A stretch of DNA of 35,717 nt from Bacteroidales bacterium (GTDB lineage Bacteria > Bacteroidota > Bacteroidia > Bacteroidales > GCA-2748055), in the NCBI GenBank assembly GCA_023138875.1, contig JAGLOO010000050.1:1-35717 (forward strand), written 5' to 3'. The translations under genes and the position numbers were made by a program. Of the stretch, positions 1,928-20,921 are shown piece after piece. Under the pieces are notes generated by a model. The model saw only the letters and a program-made list of their open reading frames with translations. It was not told the origin of the DNA and ran no database searches. Within the stretch, counting starts at the first letter, position 1. Each line of letters starts with the position of its first letter.

Positions 1928-2800
1928 TTATGCATGAATTGACGCTCCAACTGCAAGCTGATCCACCCATTCCACAATGATGCTGAATATCTCCTCCCTG
2001 TTGATTTCGTTGAAGTTTTCGTGGAAGTTCTCCGGATAGTAGTGCTCTGTGAGTACACCGGGATCGATTTTTCCCAGCAGTTGGCGGGTAGCCCCTGCGT
2101 CGGCCAGGCGGTCATCTCCGGCCACAAAAGCAAGCAGCGGGTGTTTCCATCCGGCAATCTGATCCGGAATGTATTGCTGTGCTTTCAATAATTCACTGGC
2201 AAACCGGGCCGAAACATGTGCGGCCCTGATGTGGTTGCTTTCATCATCAAGGTGTCTCTGATATATCTCCTTATCGAGCGTAAGATAGGGCTTTGAATCC
2301 TCAATGGGAACAGTCATTTTCGGCGCTACTACAGAAAGGAGCCCGGCTATTTTCAACAGGATCCAGGGTGCTTTGATGGCATTTACATAGTAGGGAGAGG
2401 AAATAATGAATCCCTTGATCTGTGGATCATTACCCAGTCTGTCCAGTCCATAAAGGGTAGCGATCAATCCACCCATGGAGTGGCCCAAGATAAATACGGG
2501 CAGACCGGCATATTGTTCCTTTGTCCATTCGATCATCAACCCAAGGTCGTCCAGAAATACTTCAAACCGGGGAATATAGACCTTCTCCTTCAGGTCATGA
2601 CCATGCAGATCATGGGCAACAGTGGCGATACCGTGTTTCTTGAAATAGAGGGCTGGCGTCAGGTAATCCCCACCATGGGCCATCCCCCCGTGAATAGCCA
2701 GCATCACTGCCCTGGACCGGTCCGGTTCCCATATGTGAATATCCCTGTCAATTCCATCGCTGCATGTCAGTTTTTCCATTCGGTCTTCCGAGAATCTCAT
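1928..2800 (-). CDS. alpha/beta hydrolase, monoacylglycerol-lipase-like
   Basis: This 290-residue protein has the alpha/beta-hydrolase layout: an oxyanion-type AIHGGMAHGG segment near residues 35-44, the nucleophile elbow GHSMGG with Ser108, a probable acid in AGDDRLADA (Asp229 or Asp230) and a probable catalytic His in NFHENF (His260). This pattern and length match the serine aminopeptidase S33/monoacylglycerol lipase group (Hydrolase_4), which cleaves esters of lipids or small molecules. There is no signal peptide, so it is probably cytoplasmic. The ATG at 2800 is used; an alternative ATG seven codons in is possible. It follows the truncated PhzF gene by 39 bases. The exact substrate cannot be read from the sequence. 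Confidence 0.85.
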   Translation of the reverse strand: MRFSEDRMEKLTCSDGIDRDIHIWEPDRSRAVMLAIHGGMAHGGDYLTPALYFKKHGIATVAHDLHGHDLKEKVYIPRFEVFLDDLGLMIEWTKEQYAGLPVFILGHSMGGLIATLYGLDRLGNDPQIKGFIISSPYYVNAIKAPWILLKIAGLLSVVAPKMTVPIEDSKPYLTLDKEIYQRHLDDESNHIRAAHVSARFASELLKAQQYIPDQIAGWKHPLLAFVAGDDRLADAGATRQLLGKIDPGVLTEHYYPENFHENFNEINREEIFSIIVEWVDQLAVGASIHA

Positions 2801-2839
2801 ATTAAATTGTTTTAATGGGCAGGACTTTTCATGATTGGA

Positions 2840-3448
2840 TCATTTGATGGCCTGTATAAAAATCTCTCCAACCATATAGGTAACTGCCTGTCCGGAAATC
2901 TTAACCCTGTCACCCAGGTTCTCGCAGACAAGGTCACCTCTGCGCTCAGAGATCTGACGGGCAGACATTTTTTTCTTGCCGAGCACCTCTGACCAGTAAG
3001 GTGTAAGGGAGGTATGGGCCGATCCCGTTACCGGGTCCTCGTTGATCCCGGCCCCCGGGGCAAAGAAACGGGAGACAAAATCCACTTCAACCCCCTTTGC
3101 AGAAACAATCACTCCCCTCACCCCTGCCCCGGCCAGTTGACCGAAATCAGGTTTCATCTCCTCGATATCCTGCTGGTCCGGGTAGATCAGCAGATAATCG
3201 GTCTTTCCCTTCAACGCTTTCAAAGGGGCCCTCCCCAGCGCATCCACCAGGTTCGCTGATACTTCAACCTCTTTCAGGGTATCGGCTGGGAAATCCAGTG
3301 TGAGCGTATCCCCGGATCTACTCACGCTAAGCCCACCGGACCTGGGGGAGTTGAACGCTATTACATCCGACGGATGGTCGAAATATTCAAACAAAACATG
3401 CGCCGTGGCCAGGGTGGCATGACCACAGAGGTCCACCTCCAGTTTCAT
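2840..3448 (-). pseudogene. 5'-truncated PhzF-family isomerase gene
   Basis: The readable protein starts abruptly at MKLEVDLCGHATLATAHVLF, which in intact PhzF proteins (about 260-290 residues) lies some 70 residues in. The rest of the family is present to the normal end, including the second-half motif INEDPVTGSAHTSL. The missing part holds the family's catalytic glutamate (the NLSETAF region), so activity is not expected. The break lies 10 bases after the stop of the DUF1287 gene. The frame extends a further 18 codons into that gene's 3' end but shows no PhzF sequence there. A 10-base palindrome, TTTCATGAAA (3443-3452), covers the first usable ATG. Either a real deletion or an assembly artefact made this junction. 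Confidence 0.75.
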
Positions 3449-3458
3449 GAAATTGAAA

Positions 3459-4049
3459 TTAATTCCCGTTATAAATATAGTGCCCGATGATGCGGAAACC
3501 AAACAGGCAATCCTCCAGTACCTGCCCGGCTCCTATGTTATGGACCACCTGGTACTCTTTCCCACCGGGTGATCTCCGGTCCACCACGATCCCGATGTGG
3601 GTAATACCTCCGCCCAGGTTCCAGCATACAATGTCCCCCGGCAGGTAGCCTCCAGGCTCATCCGTAATGGCCTTTACTGTTCCATGCCGCTCAAAGAATG
3701 TCATCAGGTTGGGCACCCTGCGGTGATCAATGTTCCTGTCGGGCCAGCTTAATCCCCAGATATCAGGGTAGAGGTCAAACTGTGCCACCATGTCCTCGTG
3801 TACCTTCTTCTGAAGATCGATCCCCAACAGCCTGTAAGCGCGGATGACCACATCGGAACATACTCCGCGACCGGCAGGTACATCCCCATTGGGATAATCC
3901 ATGGCATAGTAGGCCGGATCATACACCACTTCCTGTTCGGTAAGTAGAAGTGCGGCTTCGCTGAGCTTTTCCGCAAATCCATCCTGTCCGCAGGCCAGAA
4001 TGGCCCCGGATACAAGCAATGCAATGATGAATGTTCTTCTCATCTCCAT
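3459..4049 (-). CDS. DUF1287 family secreted protein (NlpC/P60-like fold suspected)
   Basis: This 196-residue protein has an N-terminal signal, hydrophobic to about residue 20 and ending ILACGQ; Cys20 could even make it a lipoprotein. The body matches the DUF1287 family as I know it: YPNGDVPAGRGVCSDVVIRA with Cys64, VHEDM, then NIDHRRVPNL, and later THIGIVVDRR with His151. Cys64 and His151 are candidates for a cysteine-peptidase-type pair, as in cell-wall amidases, but the biochemical role of the family is not established. It lies 66 bases downstream of the STAS-like gene and directly upstream of the broken PhzF gene. Its own length looks normal. Confidence 0.85.
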   Translation of the reverse strand: MEMRRTFIIALLVSGAILACGQDGFAEKLSEAALLLTEQEVVYDPAYYAMDYPNGDVPAGRGVCSDVVIRAYRLLGIDLQKKVHEDMVAQFDLYPDIWGLSWPDRNIDHRRVPNLMTFFERHGTVKAITDEPGGYLPGDIVCWNLGGGITHIGIVVDRRSPGGKEYQVVHNIGAGQVLEDCLFGFRIIGHYIYNGN

Positions 4050-4115
4050 TATGACAACAATTTGGTACTAATATATGCTTTGATGGAGCAATGTTTGCAG
4101 ATCAGGCCGGATAAA

Positions 4116-4475
4116 TCAGGGCGCAATCCACCTGAATGCTGCTTCTTCGGTAACAAAAGGACGTACCTGAAGATGCTTGACCATGTGGTCCACCATAACG
4201 GCATTGGATATGACGGGATGATCCAGTACAATGGCAACCTTCAGATTCTTCAATCGGTCGCTATATTTATTAAGGAAATCACTCATTTCATTGACGTTAC
4301 CCGGATCCCCCGGCATAACCACGTTTTCAAACAGGGTTATGACACCTTTGTAACCAGACAGGTCCTCAATTTTATTAAATATTTCTTTCCATGAATTAAT
4401 CATATCATCCAAAGATACTTCCCCTGAAAAACGCCGAATAATGACTTTATCCTTAATTTCAATAGAAGCTTTCAT
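4116..4475 (-). CDS. STAS/SpoIIAA-like small cytoplasmic protein
   Basis: This 119-residue protein has no signal or membrane segment. Its pattern of alternating strands and helices (an initial strand pair ending in IIRRFSGEVSLDD, then a helix, then GVITLFENVV, a helix, KVAIVLDHP and a final helix) resembles STAS/SEC14-like or 'SpoIIAA-like' proteins of Bacteroidota. The resemblance is of fold pattern only and no catalytic residue is evident. It starts at an ATG 117 bases downstream of the hgcB remnant on the same strand, so it could belong to that transcript. Function unknown. Confidence 0.65.
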   Translation of the reverse strand: MKASIEIKDKVIIRRFSGEVSLDDMINSWKEIFNKIEDLSGYKGVITLFENVVMPGDPGNVNEMSDFLNKYSDRLKNLKVAIVLDHPVISNAVMVDHMVKHLQVRPFVTEEAAFRWIAP

Positions 4476-4592
4476 ACCAATATTAAATTTAAGAAAATGA
4501 ATCGCAGGGTATTATCTCCCGGTAAATATATTTGACAGGTGTTCATTCATGAGTGACGAAGGGATAAATAATGAGCTGCCGTAAGGATTGGA

Positions 4593-4761
4593 TTACCCGC
4601 AACTACACTCGTCCGTCTTTTTGCCTTTCAAAGAAGCATAGAACATGGCCGTGGCGCAACCAACCCCACTATTTACCTGGACAGCACCTGATGCACATCA
4701 TGCAACCATTGCATAGCTCCTGGTCAAGATTCAACGTATTATCTGAATATGCGTTGTACAT
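4593..4761 (-). pseudogene. hgcB: hgcB remnant: ferredoxin partner of HgcA with an internal out-of-frame deletion
   Basis: Starting at an ATG two bases after the hgcA stop, the frame reads 30 residues with the first ferredoxin motif intact (CNGCMMCIRCCP, C-x2-C-x2-C-x3-C-P) and then hits TAG at 4669-4671. From 4679 to the TAA at 4593-4595 a different frame reads the characteristic HgcB end: VNSGVGCATAMFYASLKGK, then DECSCG. Known HgcB proteins are about 95-100 residues and carry a second CxxCxxCxxxC motif between these parts. Here that middle (roughly 40-45 residues) is missing, and 169 bases from start to stop is not a multiple of three. HgcB donates electrons to HgcA for mercury methylation. 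This copy should not make a working protein. CAGGT occurs twice at the join (CAGGTGCTGTCCAGGT on the minus strand), which could have helped a deletion. Confidence 0.85.
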
Positions 4762-4762
4762 G

Positions 4763-5542
4763 TTACAATTTAATATGGTAGAAAACCAGTGTAGCAATAA
4801 ACAGAACAGATCCACTTCCGAATAACCATACCATGGCCGGAAAGTATCTGAAAATCTCTTTCTTCACTCCGGTCCTTGAAGTGAAGGTTGTTGCGCCAGT
4901 AAAATTGAGTGACAGGAATGCACTGACTACCGCCAGGGCAGGAATAATTCCTGCAGCAAAGTAGAGGGCAGTTCCGGCAATAAACAACGGGAGCAGGACA
5001 TGTTTGAGTTCAACCGGTATGAGCAACAGCCTGTCCATGACCGGAAATTCCACCAGCCTCATTTCAGGGATTGTTTTTCCCAGTTCCAGGTACCTGGAAA
5101 GATCTGAAGCCCTTACAGGACCATATTTGATCCCGAATCCACTTTTCTCCTTCACCAGATGGGCCGCAATACCGGGAGCCCCCAGCTGGGGTAAAATAAG
5201 CGTGCGGTGATTTACAATTTCCTTCAGTCCTGTCAATTCAATTCGATGGATCAGTTCATCCGTACCAAAGGTTCCCTTACCGGCGGCACACCAGACATTA
5301 ATGCCCCTGGTGTCAAGAACCAGTATATAGCTGTCAACCCCTGTAAGATTTGATCTTAAGGCATCGAAGCTCAACGTATAGTTGGCTGTCACGAATACTG
5401 AAGATGCGGGACCGGGATTACCAAGTTTGTATAGCCCGGGTTCAACAGAATGGCCCATGCGTTTTATACCCATCCTGACCAAAATGTGGTCCAGTTGATC
5501 AGAAAAACTGATCCTGGAATTTGTGTGTTTTACTTCTAACAT
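4763..5542 (-). CDS. hgcA: HgcA-like corrinoid protein (mercury methylation) with a shortened membrane domain
   Basis: The soluble half carries the HgcA signature cap-helix motif NVWCAAGKGTFGT (Cys85 from this start), preceded by VEPGLYKLGNPGP and FVTANYTLSFD and followed by LILPQLGAPG and YGPVRASDL, all typical of HgcA. In the family the cap-helix cysteine coordinates cobalt of a corrinoid that passes a methyl group to Hg(II). Known HgcA proteins are about 320-350 residues with four or five C-terminal membrane helices. This one is 259 residues, and only about 80 residues follow the MDRLLLIPVEL segment. The reading goes from the first helix directly to the late SAFLSLNFTGATTFTS segment, so about 50-60 residues seem to be missing in frame. 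The ATG at 5542 overlaps the stop of an upstream fragment (TGATG), and hgcB follows after two bases. A different frame-compatible start lies 10 codons upstream but is not an ATG-supported choice. Function is doubtful given the short membrane part and broken partner. Confidence 0.85.
   Translation of the reverse strand: MLEVKHTNSRISFSDQLDHILVRMGIKRMGHSVEPGLYKLGNPGPASSVFVTANYTLSFDALRSNLTGVDSYILVLDTRGINVWCAAGKGTFGTDELIHRIELTGLKEIVNHRTLILPQLGAPGIAAHLVKEKSGFGIKYGPVRASDLSRYLELGKTIPEMRLVEFPVMDRLLLIPVELKHVLLPLFIAGTALYFAAGIIPALAVVSAFLSLNFTGATTFTSRTGVKKEIFRYFPAMVWLFGSGSVLFIATLVFYHIKL
4938..4954. repeat. perfect palindrome at the apparent hgcA deletion point
   Basis: GCAGGAATAATTCCTGC is an 8-base inverted repeat around a single central base. 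It encodes the AGIIPA segment of HgcA, exactly where the membrane domain seems to jump from the first to the late helices. A hairpin here could mark a replication or assembly deletion junction. Confidence 0.7.
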
Positions 5543-5658
5543 CAGCAACTCTTTTCCCGGAATAGCACCCAATATTCCTTAGTGACCTCATGAGATTTTG
5601 CCTTGAATCCTGATCCAAACATGTCGCACTTATCGCGCTGGGTGAAGAACTGCCCGTT
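5542..5658 (-). pseudogene. orphan 3' gene fragment directly upstream of hgcA
   Basis: One frame, ending at TGA 5542-5544, reads 38 residues including CDMFGSGFKAKSHEVTKEYW and ending in VLFREKSC. It looks like the genuine C-terminus of a soluble protein but has no upstream body: the frame closes at a TAG near 5689-5691, beyond which the glycosyltransferase gene ends. The TGA overlaps the hgcA ATG in the TGATG manner of translationally coupled operon genes, which supports it as a real former member of the hgcA operon. The end resembles that of small SAM-dependent methyltransferases in a general way, but I cannot name the family. Confidence 0.5.
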
Positions 5659-5702
5659 AAGAAGAAATATAACAAAGAAGGAAAACTGCTATCCGATCAG
5701 GC

Positions 5703-6662
5703 CTATCTCTTTAACAATATATAATTCCTGAATTCGCCCAGTCTCCTTCCTGAAAGCAGGTGTTTTTCAATCCAGGAGATGGTCCTGTATTTCAGTTTAT
5801 CGTGTTTTGCCTTCACGGGATTCAGGCAGCGGGTGGGACCCGTAAAGCGAAGCTGCTCTTTCCAGTCATACCGGGCAATCCATTCGTCCAACACAGCCGG
5901 ATGAGTACCCATGAACCTGGTAAGTTTGTTCAGGTTCCCGTAATCATAGATCCGGTCGTATTTATGCGCTTCGATCTGCTTCTCAATCTTCTCACGGCCT
6001 CTGTGGTTCATACTGAACACCTTGATCTTGTTCTGCATCACTGCAGGAGGACGCACCCATCCATAGTGAAAGATCTCTGCATCCACACCGGCCACTTTCA
6101 GTTTGTATGTTCCCTCCTGCTGCCTGTAGTTGATGCCATCAAAATCAGGAATCCTGCGGAATGACTGTGCCGACTCCCATGAGTAGACATCAGGAAGGTT
6201 TTTGATGATTCGGACCTCTTGCCGGTACCAGCAATGGGAATCCTGAATGTGTTCATAGTCGCCCCAGAAGTGCCGGTAACGAAACAACAGGCCCTCCACC
6301 TCCTTATCATAAAGCAATTCACGGCAACGCTCCCTGATGTTGTCCAGGTCCTTCTCGTGTACCACCTCATCCGACTGCAGGTAGAACAACCAGTCGCCGG
6401 TACACAACTCCCTGGCTAAATCTGTCTGGTGAGCGTGTTCCATACCCCGGGGATACTTCTCAATGTCCCACACCGTATCGATGATCCGGATCTTTTCACT
6501 GCCTATGGCTTCAATTTCCCGGCGGGTGGTGTCATCTTCATCAGAATCCCCCAGTGCCACAACAAATTCATCCACGATAGGCAGGATGGACTCAATGGCC
6601 TGGCGCATGGGATAGTATAATTTGAGGGCGTTCTTGCCCATGGAGAAACCACTTATCTTCAT
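5703..6662 (-). CDS. family-2-like glycosyltransferase
   Basis: This 319-residue protein starts at the ATG at 6662 (MKISGFSMGKN), seven bases after the ABC exporter stop. The N-terminal half has the GT-A features: a nucleotide-binding start, IVDEFVVALGDSDEDDTTR, and DWLFYLQSDEVVHEKDL, whose acidic residues would bind the metal and nucleotide sugar. The C-terminal half is charged and has no long membrane helix, so the enzyme is probably cytoplasmic or membrane-associated by its surface. Tight coupling with an MsbA-like exporter suggests transfer of a sugar to a lipid or glycan that the exporter flips, for example lipid A core or a glycolipid. Donor and acceptor are not readable from sequence. 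Confidence 0.8.
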   Translation of the reverse strand: MKISGFSMGKNALKLYYPMRQAIESILPIVDEFVVALGDSDEDDTTRREIEAIGSEKIRIIDTVWDIEKYPRGMEHAHQTDLARELCTGDWLFYLQSDEVVHEKDLDNIRERCRELLYDKEVEGLLFRYRHFWGDYEHIQDSHCWYRQEVRIIKNLPDVYSWESAQSFRRIPDFDGINYRQQEGTYKLKVAGVDAEIFHYGWVRPPAVMQNKIKVFSMNHRGREKIEKQIEAHKYDRIYDYGNLNKLTRFMGTHPAVLDEWIARYDWKEQLRFTGPTRCLNPVKAKHDKLKYRTISWIEKHLLSGRRLGEFRNYILLKR

Positions 6663-6669
6663 AGGAGAG

Positions 6670-8493
6670 TTAAAACATTTGCATTGAATGAAGTTTATGG
6701 TACAGGCCATCTTTATTCCGGTTCAGTTCATCATGGGTTCCCCGCTCCACAATCTTGCCTTCATCGATCACAAGGATCATATCGGCATGTTTAATGGTGG
6801 AGAGCCGGTGTGCGATCACAATGGAGGTCCGGTTCTGCATCAGCTTGATGATAGCATCCTGCACCAATCTCTCTGACTCAGTATCGAGCGCAGAGGTTGC
6901 TTCGTCCAGGATCAGGATGGGCGGATTGGCCATCACGGCCCTGGCAATACTGATGCGTTGTTTCTGTCCCCCGGAAAGCTTGCTTCCACCTTCCCCCACA
7001 TTGGCATCGTATTGATTTTCAGTATCTATGATAAACTCATGGGCGTTAGCCACCTTTGCTGAATGGATGATCCTCTCCGTATCGGCTCCTCCGTTGCTCC
7101 CGAAGGCAATGTTGTTCCTGAAGGAATCATTAAAAAGGATCGATTGCTGACTCACAATGCCCATCAACGTTCTCAAGGACCTGATACGGTAATCCCGGAC
7201 AGGGATCCCGTCAATGTAAATCTCCCCTTCAGTCACATCCATAAACCTGGGCAGAAGGTCAACTAGCGTTGATTTCCCTGATCCGGATTTTCCCACAAGG
7301 GCAATAGACTGTCCCTTTTTGATGGTAAAGGAGACGTTTTTCAGCACATATTCCTTATCATATTTAAATGAGACATTCTTGTACTCGATGGAGTCGCTAA
7401 ATGCACTGACCTGAACTGCATCCGGCTTCTCCCTGATCTTCACATCAGCCAGCAACACCTGATCCACCCGGTCCACCGATGCCATGCCCTTCTGTATATT
7501 GAAATAGGCCGCGGTAAAATTCTTTGCCGGGGTAATGATCTGGCTGAAGATGATCAGGAATAAGATCAGTTTCTCACCGGTAAGGTTGCCTCCCCCCGAC
7601 AGCACCAGTGATCCTCCGTAAACCATGATGACCATCAACACAATGGTGCTCATGAATTCACTCAGGGGACTGGCCAGGTACCTCCGGCGGATGACTTTCC
7701 TCAGCAGGAGGGCAAAGCGGTTGTTGGTATCGGCAAACTTCCCTGTCATGTGTTCTTCACCGTTGAATGCCTTGATGATCCTTAATCCTGTGAGGGTCTC
7801 TTCCAACAGTGCCAGCAGTTCACCCAGGCGCTCCTGTCCCCTGAAAGTGGTTTTCCTGAGACTGCGTGCAATGCGACCGATCAGGACCCCTGTCAGCGGA
7901 AGGATCACCACCACAAATATGGTCAGGTTAAAACTGGTGGAGAACAGGACTATCAGGTAGATAATGATGGAGATCGGATCCCTGAACAACATCTGCAGGG
8001 AACTCATAATGGAGGTTTCAATCTCCTGTACATCGCTGGAAATGCGGGCAATCACATCGCCTTTCCGGGCCTCGGTATAATAGGAAAGGGGAAGCCTCAG
8101 CACTTTCTTATAGATGTCGTTTCGTATATCCCTTACAGTGAAAGCCCTGATCGGGGCCAGCACATAATTGGCCAGAAATAAGAATCCGTTCTTCAAGAGG
8201 CTGAACAGCACCACCATGATGCTCACCACCATAAGCGCACTGGCCTCACCCCTGACCTCCGTCATTTTACTCATGTAGTAATTGAGGGTATGCATGAAAT
8301 AGTCCGTGCTCAACTCAAACTCCATGGGTTCGAAGACCTTGGGCTGGGTTTCGAACAACACACTCAGAAAGGGAATGACCATGGCAAAGGAAAAGACCGC
8401 AAAGAAAGCACCCAGGATATTGTAAATAATATTCTGGGCCACATACCACTTGTAAGGCAGTAGATAATTTAAAAGCTTGAAAAATCTTCTCAT
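6670..8493 (-). CDS. MsbA-like ABC exporter (membrane and ATPase domains fused)
   Basis: This 607-residue half-transporter has six predicted membrane helices in the first 330 residues or so, followed by a complete nucleotide-binding domain. Visible motifs are Walker A GKSGSGKST (near residue 400), Q-loop region GIVSQQSILF, signature LSGGQKQRISIARA (near 510), Walker B ILILDEATSALD (near 530) and the switch IAHRLSTI. It acts as a homodimer in the inner membrane. The MsbA group flips lipid A core or other lipids outward; related proteins export drugs or peptides. The start is taken at the ATG at 8493 because the longer frame would need TTG. It lies 33 bases downstream of purB and seven bases upstream of the glycosyltransferase. 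Confidence 0.9.
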   Translation of the reverse strand: MRRFFKLLNYLLPYKWYVAQNIIYNILGAFFAVFSFAMVIPFLSVLFETQPKVFEPMEFELSTDYFMHTLNYYMSKMTEVRGEASALMVVSIMVVLFSLLKNGFLFLANYVLAPIRAFTVRDIRNDIYKKVLRLPLSYYTEARKGDVIARISSDVQEIETSIMSSLQMLFRDPISIIIYLIVLFSTSFNLTIFVVVILPLTGVLIGRIARSLRKTTFRGQERLGELLALLEETLTGLRIIKAFNGEEHMTGKFADTNNRFALLLRKVIRRRYLASPLSEFMSTIVLMVIMVYGGSLVLSGGGNLTGEKLILFLIIFSQIITPAKNFTAAYFNIQKGMASVDRVDQVLLADVKIREKPDAVQVSAFSDSIEYKNVSFKYDKEYVLKNVSFTIKKGQSIALVGKSGSGKSTLVDLLPRFMDVTEGEIYIDGIPVRDYRIRSLRTLMGIVSQQSILFNDSFRNNIAFGSNGGADTERIIHSAKVANAHEFIIDTENQYDANVGEGGSKLSGGQKQRISIARAVMANPPILILDEATSALDTESERLVQDAIIKLMQNRTSIVIAHRLSTIKHADMILVIDEGKIVERGTHDELNRNKDGLYHKLHSMQMF

Positions 8494-19390: not shown

Positions 19391-19546
19391 CAACAACCCC
19401 GGGGTCCCCCCATCCCTACATGTGGGTATTTTCCGGGAACCAAATACAAAAAAACAGGAAAAATCCATACTTACCAGGCCGGATCTGCAAAGAAAAATTG
19501 GTTTTCTATACAAAAGACGCTTTCTTTAGTATATAAGATACTGTAA

Positions 19547-20680
19547 ATGAAAAGACAACTCCTTACCACATTTTTCCTTATCACCTGTGTATTTATCTCT
19601 TTCGGACAGAGCAATACTTATATCCTGAAAAGACAGAAGTACAAAACCAGCCTCACCTCCATCAATATATCCCCGGACGGCAGCCTTTTGCTGGCCGGAT
19701 TCCATGACGGATCGTTCAGGCTGCTGGATCCGGTATCCTTCCAGACCAGATTGGAGGTGGAGGAAGCACATTACAAGGCGGTTAATGCCATGGACATGCC
19801 TCCAAAAATGGATTTTGTCCTCACGGCCGGACATAATTCCATTAAGTTGTGGGACCTGACCGGGAAACGCGTTGCCAGCTGGTCCTCCCATGCCACCACC
19901 ATCTGGAATGTGGATATCAGCAACGATGGAAAACATGCCGTCTCCTCCGCATTCAACAAAACATTCCTGCTGTGGGATGTATACAACAGTGTGGTGCTGG
20001 AACAGATGCGTGGCCATGAAGATGTAACCATGTCGGTATGCATCAGTCCCGATAGCCGGTTGATTGCCAGTGGAAGCAATGACCTGACTGTAAAGATTTG
20101 GGACATTGATACAAAGCAGGTTGTTAAAACCCTGCATGGTCCCACCCAGGATGTCTATGATGTGGCTTTCAGTCCCGACAGTCGTCTTCTGGCAGTTGCT
20201 TCCAAAGACCGTTCCGTGAGGGTTTACAATGTGGAAGAGGAGGAACTGGTCCATCTCCTGAAGGGGCACAGGGACATGGTGATGGAGGTGACATTCAGTC
20301 CCTGCGGACACTACCTGGTGAGCGGATCGGCCGACCAGTCCCTGATCCTCTGGGATGTGGCCACAGGCGAACGGATCCACTCCTTCCTGGACAATGAAGA
20401 GGCGGTACTGGACCTGGTCTACCATTCCGATGGAAACTCTTTCTACAGCATCTCCTTTGCGCAGGACCTGACCCGCTGGGAAGTGCATCCGGAGATCTTC
20501 GTGCTGAAATATTACGACAAACCATACCTGGAAGAGCTCTCCGGCGATCCCCTTTTTGAACCGAGAAGAAAGGGTGAAGCCAAAAAGGATTTCCAGGCGA
20601 GACAGGCAGAGGCCGGGAACAAGAAAAAGGAGATCATGGAACGCTACTACCAGCAATACCTTTCTGAAAGGGACCGGTAA
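19547..20680 (+). CDS. periplasmic or secreted WD40-repeat protein
   Basis: This 377-residue protein has a signal peptide (hydrophobic to about residue 20, ending SFGQS). Seven WD40-type repeats follow. Clear ones are SVCISPDSRLIASGSNDLTV with KIWDI, DVAFSPDSRLLAVASKDRSV with RVYNV, and EVTFSPCGHYLVSGSADQSL with ILWDV. Seven blades make one complete propeller, a binding scaffold with no catalytic residues. The last 60 residues are charged and rich in Lys, Glu and Arg and probably helical. A long antisense frame covers the gene but shows no protein-like features. The partner is unknown. It lies between the metal cluster and tryptophanase, with its own 220-base upstream gap. Confidence 0.85.
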   Translation: MKRQLLTTFFLITCVFISFGQSNTYILKRQKYKTSLTSINISPDGSLLLAGFHDGSFRLLDPVSFQTRLEVEEAHYKAVNAMDMPPKMDFVLTAGHNSIKLWDLTGKRVASWSSHATTIWNVDISNDGKHAVSSAFNKTFLLWDVYNSVVLEQMRGHEDVTMSVCISPDSRLIASGSNDLTVKIWDIDTKQVVKTLHGPTQDVYDVAFSPDSRLLAVASKDRSVRVYNVEEEELVHLLKGHRDMVMEVTFSPCGHYLVSGSADQSLILWDVATGERIHSFLDNEEAVLDLVYHSDGNSFYSISFAQDLTRWEVHPEIFVLKYYDKPYLEELSGDPLFEPRRKGEAKKDFQARQAEAGNKKKEIMERYYQQYLSERDR

Positions 20681-20921
20681 CCCGGCTGCCCAAGAACATC
20701 CATCCTGCAACAAGCAGATTGCACATTTCATGCTAAATTTGCAACAGGAATGTACCATTGTATCTCAATATCATTCAAACGCCTGTTCCTGAACATCAAG
20801 AACCGGGACACCTACACTTTCCAGTAAGGTAACCTTCCATTGCCCGATCATTTTTCCTAATTCCTGACTTCCTGACAAATAATTTTCACCTTGCTGTATT
20901 GCAGCCTTTTAGCTTCTAAAT

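What the first reader, a model, noticed from the sequence alone, without database searches (positions are those of the whole stretch)
4593..5542. hgcAB mercury-methylation locus in a Bacteroidota-like genome, with hgcB broken
The NVWCAAGK cap-helix motif and the surrounding HgcA segments are visible in the gene at 4763-5542. Two bases downstream, a reading with one CxxCxxCxxxCP motif and, in another frame, the typical HgcB end (GVGCATAMFYASLKGK, then DECSCG) can be pieced together. The middle of HgcB, with its second cluster motif, is absent and the parts are out of frame. Both genes are known to be needed for mercury methylation, so this locus looks like a freshly inactivated one: most of the signature remains, which implies recent loss.
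Basis: partly seen in the sequence, partly recalled or inferred. Interest (0 to 1): 0.85.

Follow-up and report, generated by a model that had tools for sequence, protein, structure and literature searches.

The report
Borrowed, recently broken mercury-methylation genes
A Bacteroidota genome carries a mercury-methylation gene pair of the type found in methanogens and Chloroflexi, and both genes have lost their middle parts, so a genome that a standard marker score would flag as a methylmercury maker probably is not one.

Summary
The gene at 5542..4763 (minus) passes the NCBIfam HgcA cut-off (352 vs 275 bits). Both HgcB pieces match the HgcB profile separately; about 35 codons between them, with five of eight cluster cysteines, are gone and the frames disagree. 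(1) HgcA is broken too: about 66 residues of the membrane domain are missing in frame (131 residues between two landmarks; 191-211 in 85 rows, 205-236 in 21 more). (2) The pair is not the type carried by genus mates (49-54% identical) but lies in a methanogen/Chloroflexi clade (up to 67%; grouping with mates rejected, AU p 0.0014), so it was probably acquired horizontally; 7 of 7 syntenic mates have no hgcA at this site. (3) Neighbouring phzF has lost about 60 residues near its start. All 50 residues invariant in 24 relatives remain, so inactivation looks recent. No place in the genome passes the HgcB cut-off. Best reading: acquired, then recently inactivated hgcAB. Main rival: local assembly error; raw reads were not available.

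The parts
4763..5542 (-). hgcA remnant: corrinoid domain complete, membrane domain shortened to three helices; deletion junction near 4927
   Evidence: NF040863 352 bits over cut-off 275; about 66 residues missing between cap helix and NFTG motif; model with three membrane-domain helices
4690..4761 (-). hgcB N-terminal piece, with three cysteines of the first cluster motif; the frame meets a stop at 4671-4669
   Evidence: NF040864 positions 2-23
4593..4688 (-). hgcB C-terminal piece in another frame: GVGC (conserved lone Cys) and C-terminal cysteines; deletion junction at about 4689
   Evidence: NF040864 positions 59-87; own-genome profile hit 4596-4712 with 28 bits
5632..5706 (+). probable 3' remnant of a MORN-like lipoprotein gene (name recalled) that is full length in 6 of 7 syntenic genus mates; edge of the hgcAB-bearing segment
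   Evidence: similar stretch 5641-5694, 67% over 18 residues, E 0.002; synteny
4116..4475 (-). intact SpoIIAA/STAS-like gene, neighbour on the other side (present in 5 of 7 syntenic mates)
   Evidence: Pfam SpoIIAA-like, E 0.00017, just under its cut-off
2840..3448 (-). phzF-family gene lacking about 60 residues after its first three codons; junction near 3440
   Evidence: G015 homologue aligned 65-262 of 262; frames; Pfam PhzC-PhzF from profile position 62
5703..6710 (-). intact glycosyltransferase-like gene, syntenic flank
   Evidence: 80% identical in G015 with the same neighbours
3459..4049 (-). intact DUF1287 gene, syntenic flank
   Evidence: 75% identical in G015

Best explanation
An ancestor of this Bacteroidota species acquired an hgcAB pair of the methanogen/Chloroflexi type between a glycosyltransferase gene and a STAS-like gene, at the cost of most of a MORN-like gene. 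The pair stayed under purifying selection for some time and then was recently inactivated by deletions: about 200 bp in frame inside the hgcA membrane domain, about 105 bp out of frame inside hgcB. Without a two-cluster HgcB, and with HgcA missing two of its five membrane helices, this locus should not methylate mercury. Shown here: gene identities, lesions in the assembly, a different clade from the mates, no hgcA at the site in mates. Inferred: direction and timing of transfer, loss of activity, that the lesions are real in the organism.
For: HgcA over its equivalog cut-off; HgcB pieces match only HgcB among NCBIfam models. Landmark spacing 131 in the window against 191-211 in 85 rows measured of 91 and 205-236 in 21 of 22 order-level genes. 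AU test rejects grouping with five genus/family mates, p 0.00136; in a 53-row tree all 25 rows of the same order, family and genus fall in one group and the window in the other. 0 of 7 syntenic mates have hgcA at the site. Invariant positions kept 50 of 50. 14 of 15 window genes matched by G015 frames show no gap of 8 residues and no stop. No HgcB over the cut-off in the genome. Published mutants: truncating the HgcA membrane domain, or changing the conserved lone Cys of HgcB, abolishes methylation (PMC7305189, passages).
Against: No raw reads: the lesions rest on one assembly. Three deletions of about 100-200 bp within about 1.5 kb, with perfect conservation of the rest, is also what a local assembly fault in intact genes would give. 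End losses of 40 residues or more, such as the one in phzF, occur at four other places in the sample. hgcA base composition (46.2% G+C; 44.4% in the genome sample) and codon usage are ordinary for the host, so transfer is not visible in composition. The window's branch is long (0.84) and its exact sister unresolved. In the family mate G023 the Bacteroidota-type hgcA lies about 3.1 kb from a DUF1287 gene, so hgcAB near DUF1287 is not unique to the window, though the genes between them differ. Published truncations removed the whole membrane domain, not two helices.
Confidence: 0.66

Rival explanations
1. Local assembly error: the organism has intact hgcAB and phzF, and the assembler dropped three short stretches.
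For: All invariant residues retained in the pieces. Small frameshifts, single stops and end losses occur elsewhere in the sampled genome. Clustering of the lesions in one short stretch fits a local problem. The absence of long repeats in 2700-5900 does not speak against it, because a collapsed repeat would leave one copy.
Against: Among 178 homologous places in 0.81 Mb (window included) an internal loss of 15 or more residues was seen at one place only (19 residues, on C18, with 101 N-terminal residues also lost), so the assembly is not generally prone to it. The genes on both sides are clean.
Confidence: 0.24
2. A working, reshaped HgcA: a three-helix membrane protein that keeps a corrinoid function without HgcB, or uses another ferredoxin.
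For: Open frame over 259 codons, 50 of 50 invariant residues kept, two helices removed so membrane parity is preserved, ten other places with ferredoxin matches to the HgcB profile in the genome, all below its cut-off.
Against: No relative measured shows the short form. hgcB is broken in the same operon. TM helices 4 and 5 form the published contact with the HgcB extension (PMC7305189).
Confidence: 0.07
3. The pair is an old second hgcAB type of Bacteroidota, inherited vertically and lost by the sampled relatives, rather than acquired; this is compatible with its inactivation.
For: Host-like composition; published statement that hgcAB distribution is driven by transfer and loss (PMC7862947, passages).
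Against: Of 392 other genomes of the order sampled 22 have hgcA, none above 58% identical to the window's, and the 20 placed in a tree fall in the other clade; no hgcA at the site in 7 of 7 mates.
Confidence: 0.08

Closest known systems
hgcAB mercury-methylation pair, Euryarchaeota/Chloroflexi type (NCBIfam NF040863 and NF040864)
   Same: HgcA corrinoid domain with NVWCAAGK, NFTG membrane motif, hgcB directly downstream; clade
   Different: Host is a Bacteroidota; about 66 residues of the membrane domain and about 35 codons of hgcB missing
hgcAB of Bacteroidota (genus mates G012, G013, G014, G016; family mate G023)
   Same: Same gene pair and order, host relatives
   Different: 49-54% identical over the first 180-200 residues, other clade, intact, other surroundings
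Acetyl-CoA-pathway corrinoid iron-sulfur protein, gamma subunit (PDB 2h9a, 4c1n, 4djd)
   Same: Homologous corrinoid domain, query 31-152
   Different: Below the family cut-off (74 of 306 bits); the window gene has a membrane domain

Membership tests
HgcA | Passes curated equivalog score | tested here: met
   352.3 bits, cut-off 275
HgcA | Cap-helix motif with the Cys that faces the corrinoid | tested here: met
   NVWCAAGK at residues 82-89
HgcA | Complete five-helix membrane domain | tested here: not met
   About 66 residues missing; three helices in the model
HgcB | Two CxxCxxCxxxCP motifs in one frame | tested here: not met
   Three genuine cluster cysteines left, second motif absent, frame broken
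HgcB | Conserved lone Cys (GVGC) and C-terminal cysteines | tested here: met
   Present in the C-terminal piece, out of frame with the start
Working mercury methylator | Makes methylmercury | not testable with these tools
   Needs culture or sample assay
Bacteroidota-type hgcAB | Clusters with hgcA of the same order | tested here: not met
   AU p 0.00136 against five genus and family mates; tree with 20 order-level genes
Horizontally acquired gene | Closest relatives in other phyla and no copy at the site in near relatives | tested here: met
   The 80 loci kept are Methanomicrobiales, Chloroflexota and other phyla (capped list that may omit near genomes; order and phylum sampled); 0 of 7 syntenic mates have hgcA there
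Horizontally acquired gene | Foreign base composition or codon usage | tested here: not met
   46.2% G+C against 44.4% in the host sample; codon usage at the 21st percentile; expected only for recent transfers

The most novel reading that the evidence does not exclude
The shortened HgcA is not dead but reshaped: a three-helix corrinoid membrane protein kept under selection after HgcB was lost, doing a methyl-transfer job other than mercury methylation, which would point to an original function of HgcA.
Probability: 0.06. Interest if true: 0.8.

Novelty: new variant of a known kind. Interest (0 to 1): 0.52.

Why it matters
hgcA presence is used to call an organism a mercury methylator. This genome passes the HgcA score that NCBI uses for naming, yet both genes are damaged, so such counts can include false positives. 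It also looks like both steps thought to shape the patchy spread of hgcAB, gain from another phylum and loss by deletion, caught at one place, in a genus whose other members supply intact own-type pairs and sites without hgcA as controls. A 2020 survey reported Bacteroidetes/Ignavibacteria HgcAB as one of only two groups that clustered monophyletically (PMC7438021, section 8); this gene would be an exception.

Tried and rejected
A 48-aa minus ORF at 5545-5688 was first suspected as a remnant of an upstream gene. It matched no NCBIfam or Pfam family, no solved structure and nothing convincing in 50 relatives (best E 0.02), and the synteny shows that it overlaps, antisense, the probable MORN-like remnant. 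An idea that it was an arsenic methyltransferase tail came from memory and had no support.

Contamination or chimeric contig: judged unlikely, because both flanks are syntenic with genus mates on one contig and composition is host-like.

Plasmid or viral carriage: no match in 72,556 plasmid records; 35 pattern matches in viral contigs, none a relative. No tRNA in the window.

Literature: listings were read for a described decaying hgcAB; none was seen. One search was poorly aimed (its terms matched unrelated papers). Passages of PMC7305189, PMC7438021 (and its section 8), PMC11505543 and PMC7862947 were read; nothing else was read.

Rows dropped: in the spacing count 6 of 91 rows gave no measure (L056, L068, L079, L085 by motif; L008 and L009 are C-terminal stretches near contig ends), and 4 of the 85 measured are second fetches of the same gene (L010-L013). 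In the 53-row tree 2 of 22 order-level genes (L272, L278) were left out because my motif filter missed them. The 42-row tree used 42 hand-picked of the 87 rows. The frames used include some antisense shadows (one example is window 19529-20758 in the reverse comparison).

Full report
What is there. The window is G000:C46:1-35717 of a 4.79 Mb, 87-contig genome, 99.6% complete. It is a Bacteroidota: 21 SusD matches, a family that among the 14 control genomes was found only in Bacteroides, and 95 type IX sorting-tail matches. On the minus strand at 5542..4763 an open frame of 259 codons encodes HgcA: NF040863 at 352.3 bits against a cut-off of 275, while the HgcAB-like fusion family and the acetyl-CoA-pathway gamma subunit stay below theirs. 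Solved relatives found by sequence are corrinoid iron-sulfur proteins, over residues 31-152 only. One base after its stop comes the start of hgcB.

hgcB. The N-terminal piece (4761..4690) and the C-terminal piece (4688..4593) are in different frames. Searched apart, each matches NF040864 and no other NCBIfam model, at positions 2-23 and 59-87. Compared with relatives roughly 35 codons are gone, by a length that is not a multiple of three. Of eight cluster cysteines three remain; the lone conserved Cys and C-terminal cysteines also remain. Intact copies exist in many relatives. No other place in the genome passes the HgcB cut-off; the best of 11 matches is 42 bits against 99, and one of the 11 is the window's own C-terminal piece. 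One hgcA place was found in the genome.

hgcA is broken too. From the cap helix to the NFTG motif the window has 131 residues. In 85 measured rows of 91 (81 distinct genes) the spacing is 191-211, and in 21 of 22 further genes of the order 205-236 (236 is one outlier, L279; the unmeasured one is itself broken). By alignment and hydropathy the missing block takes most of membrane helix 2, helix 3 and part of helix 4. A model of the protein as it stands (25-row alignment, mean pLDDT 82, pTM 0.75) has a full corrinoid domain and three helices in the membrane domain, at lower confidence there. In print, truncations removing the whole membrane domain abolish methylation, the HgcB extension contacts helices 4 and 5, and the lone Cys of HgcB is essential (PMC7305189, passages).

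Recency. Of 50 positions invariant in the 24 relatives aligned, the window keeps 50; single relatives, each tested against the others, deviate at 0 to 4. The frame has no stop. Either the loss is recent, or the short protein is still under constraint, or the assembly is wrong.

Origin. Within the genus 6 of 17 other genomes have an hgcA match, four in full and two as C-terminal stretches near contig ends; one more is in the family. In these five full genes the best segment is 49-54% identical to the window's. In an 87-row quick tree the window lies in a 75-row clade with SH-aLRT 100, away from the mates. In a 42-row careful tree, holding it together with five genus and family mates costs 62 log units, AU p 0.00136. 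Among the order, 22 of 392 other genomes sampled have hgcA, 44-58% identical; the 20 placed all fall with the mates. In an even sample of the phylum 1 of 394 other genomes has one at E 1e-40 or better, also with the mates. The window's branch is long and its nearest sister unresolved, so the donor cannot be named. Composition is host-like (46.2% G+C in hgcA, 44.4% in 0.77 Mb sampled, five donor-type loci 52-60%; codon usage at the 21st percentile of 415 frames, some of which may be antisense), so transfer is not fresh or came from a donor of similar composition.

Site. Seven genus mates with the same neighbourhood (G002, G008, G010, G011, G013, G015, G016) have no hgcA in the stretches of 7-12 kb fetched there. 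Six have an intact MORN-like lipoprotein gene convergent to the glycosyltransferase gene; in G011 it is internally broken. Five have the STAS-like gene next to it. The window has only a short end of the MORN-like gene at about 5632-5706, then hgcAB, then the STAS-like gene. This is what an insertion that displaced most of the MORN-like gene would leave. The stretch of similarity is short (18 residues, 67%, E 0.002), so its place in the synteny carries the argument. Against a unique site: in family mate G023 the Bacteroidota-type hgcA lies about 3.1 kb from a DUF1287 gene, with other genes between. In the five full hgcAB of genus and family a MarR-like frame follows the pair (name recalled); the window has none.

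Local or general damage? phzF at 2840-3448 lacks about 60 residues after its third codon, compared with G015; recalled from the family, this part holds the catalytic glutamate. The other 14 of 15 G015 frames that match the window show no gap of 8 residues and no stop. In 0.81 Mb of the genome (window included) 178 homologous places with mates gave 12 with any event. One is phzF. One, on C18, lost 101 N-terminal and 19 internal residues, and is the only internal loss of 15 or more. Unexplained end losses of 40 or more residues occur at four places besides phzF (251, 101, 52 and 40 residues); three places are small frameshifts with the rest in another frame; the remaining events are single stops. 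The reverse comparison gave 8 of 180. So the genome is not riddled with internal deletions, yet a cluster of lesions in hgcA, hgcB, phzF and the MORN-like gene in under 3 kb is odd. It fits a stretch freed from selection, or a local assembly fault. The search for repeats cannot decide, because a collapsed repeat leaves one copy. Only reads can settle this.

A second case. In G585, of the same order, hgcA (L271, about 1441-2071) has an in-frame stop at 1612 and another at 2071 after the first membrane stretch, and no hgcB was found by motif in the 3.6 kb fetched; frames that look like ArsR, an ArsC-type phosphatase and an arsenite transporter lie around it (the ars names are recalled, not searched). 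Decay of hgcAB may therefore be recurrent in this order; this too rests on one draft assembly.

Verdict. The more interesting part is that the broken pair is foreign to the lineage. Transfer and loss of hgcAB are both accepted in print (PMC7438021, PMC7862947); a damaged copy at an identified site, with mates lacking hgcA there, was not seen in the listings.

Noticed in passing
L271 (G585:C99), about 1441-2071: A second decayed hgcA in the same order: two in-frame stops, most of the membrane domain lost, no hgcB found by motif, between arsR/arsC-like and arsenite-transporter-like frames (names recalled).
   Followed up: partly
window 2840-3448: phzF-family gene has lost about 60 residues after its first three codons while the genes on both sides are intact.
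   Followed up: partly
L272 and L278 (G443, G554): HgcA with an unusual cap helix NVWCSAAKG; in L272 the adjacent HgcB has GTGC in place of GVGC.
   Followed up: no
L243-L247 (G012, G013, G014, G016, G023), just after hgcB: A frame of about 146-158 aa resembling a MarR-type regulator follows hgcAB in all five full Bacteroidota-type loci of the genus and family; the window has none (name recalled).
   Followed up: no
L237 (G011) 4418-4697: The MORN-like lipoprotein gene beside the site is internally deleted and frame-shifted in another genus mate.
   Followed up: no
L121 (G000:C18) 3186-4689: Another gene of the window's genome lacks about 100 N-terminal and 19 internal residues compared with G010.
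   Followed up: no
L017 6307-6726 and L040 3642-4010: Frames resembling ArsC-type low-molecular-weight phosphatases lie next to intact hgcAB of the same type, as also in G585; a possible arsenic link (names recalled).
   Followed up: no
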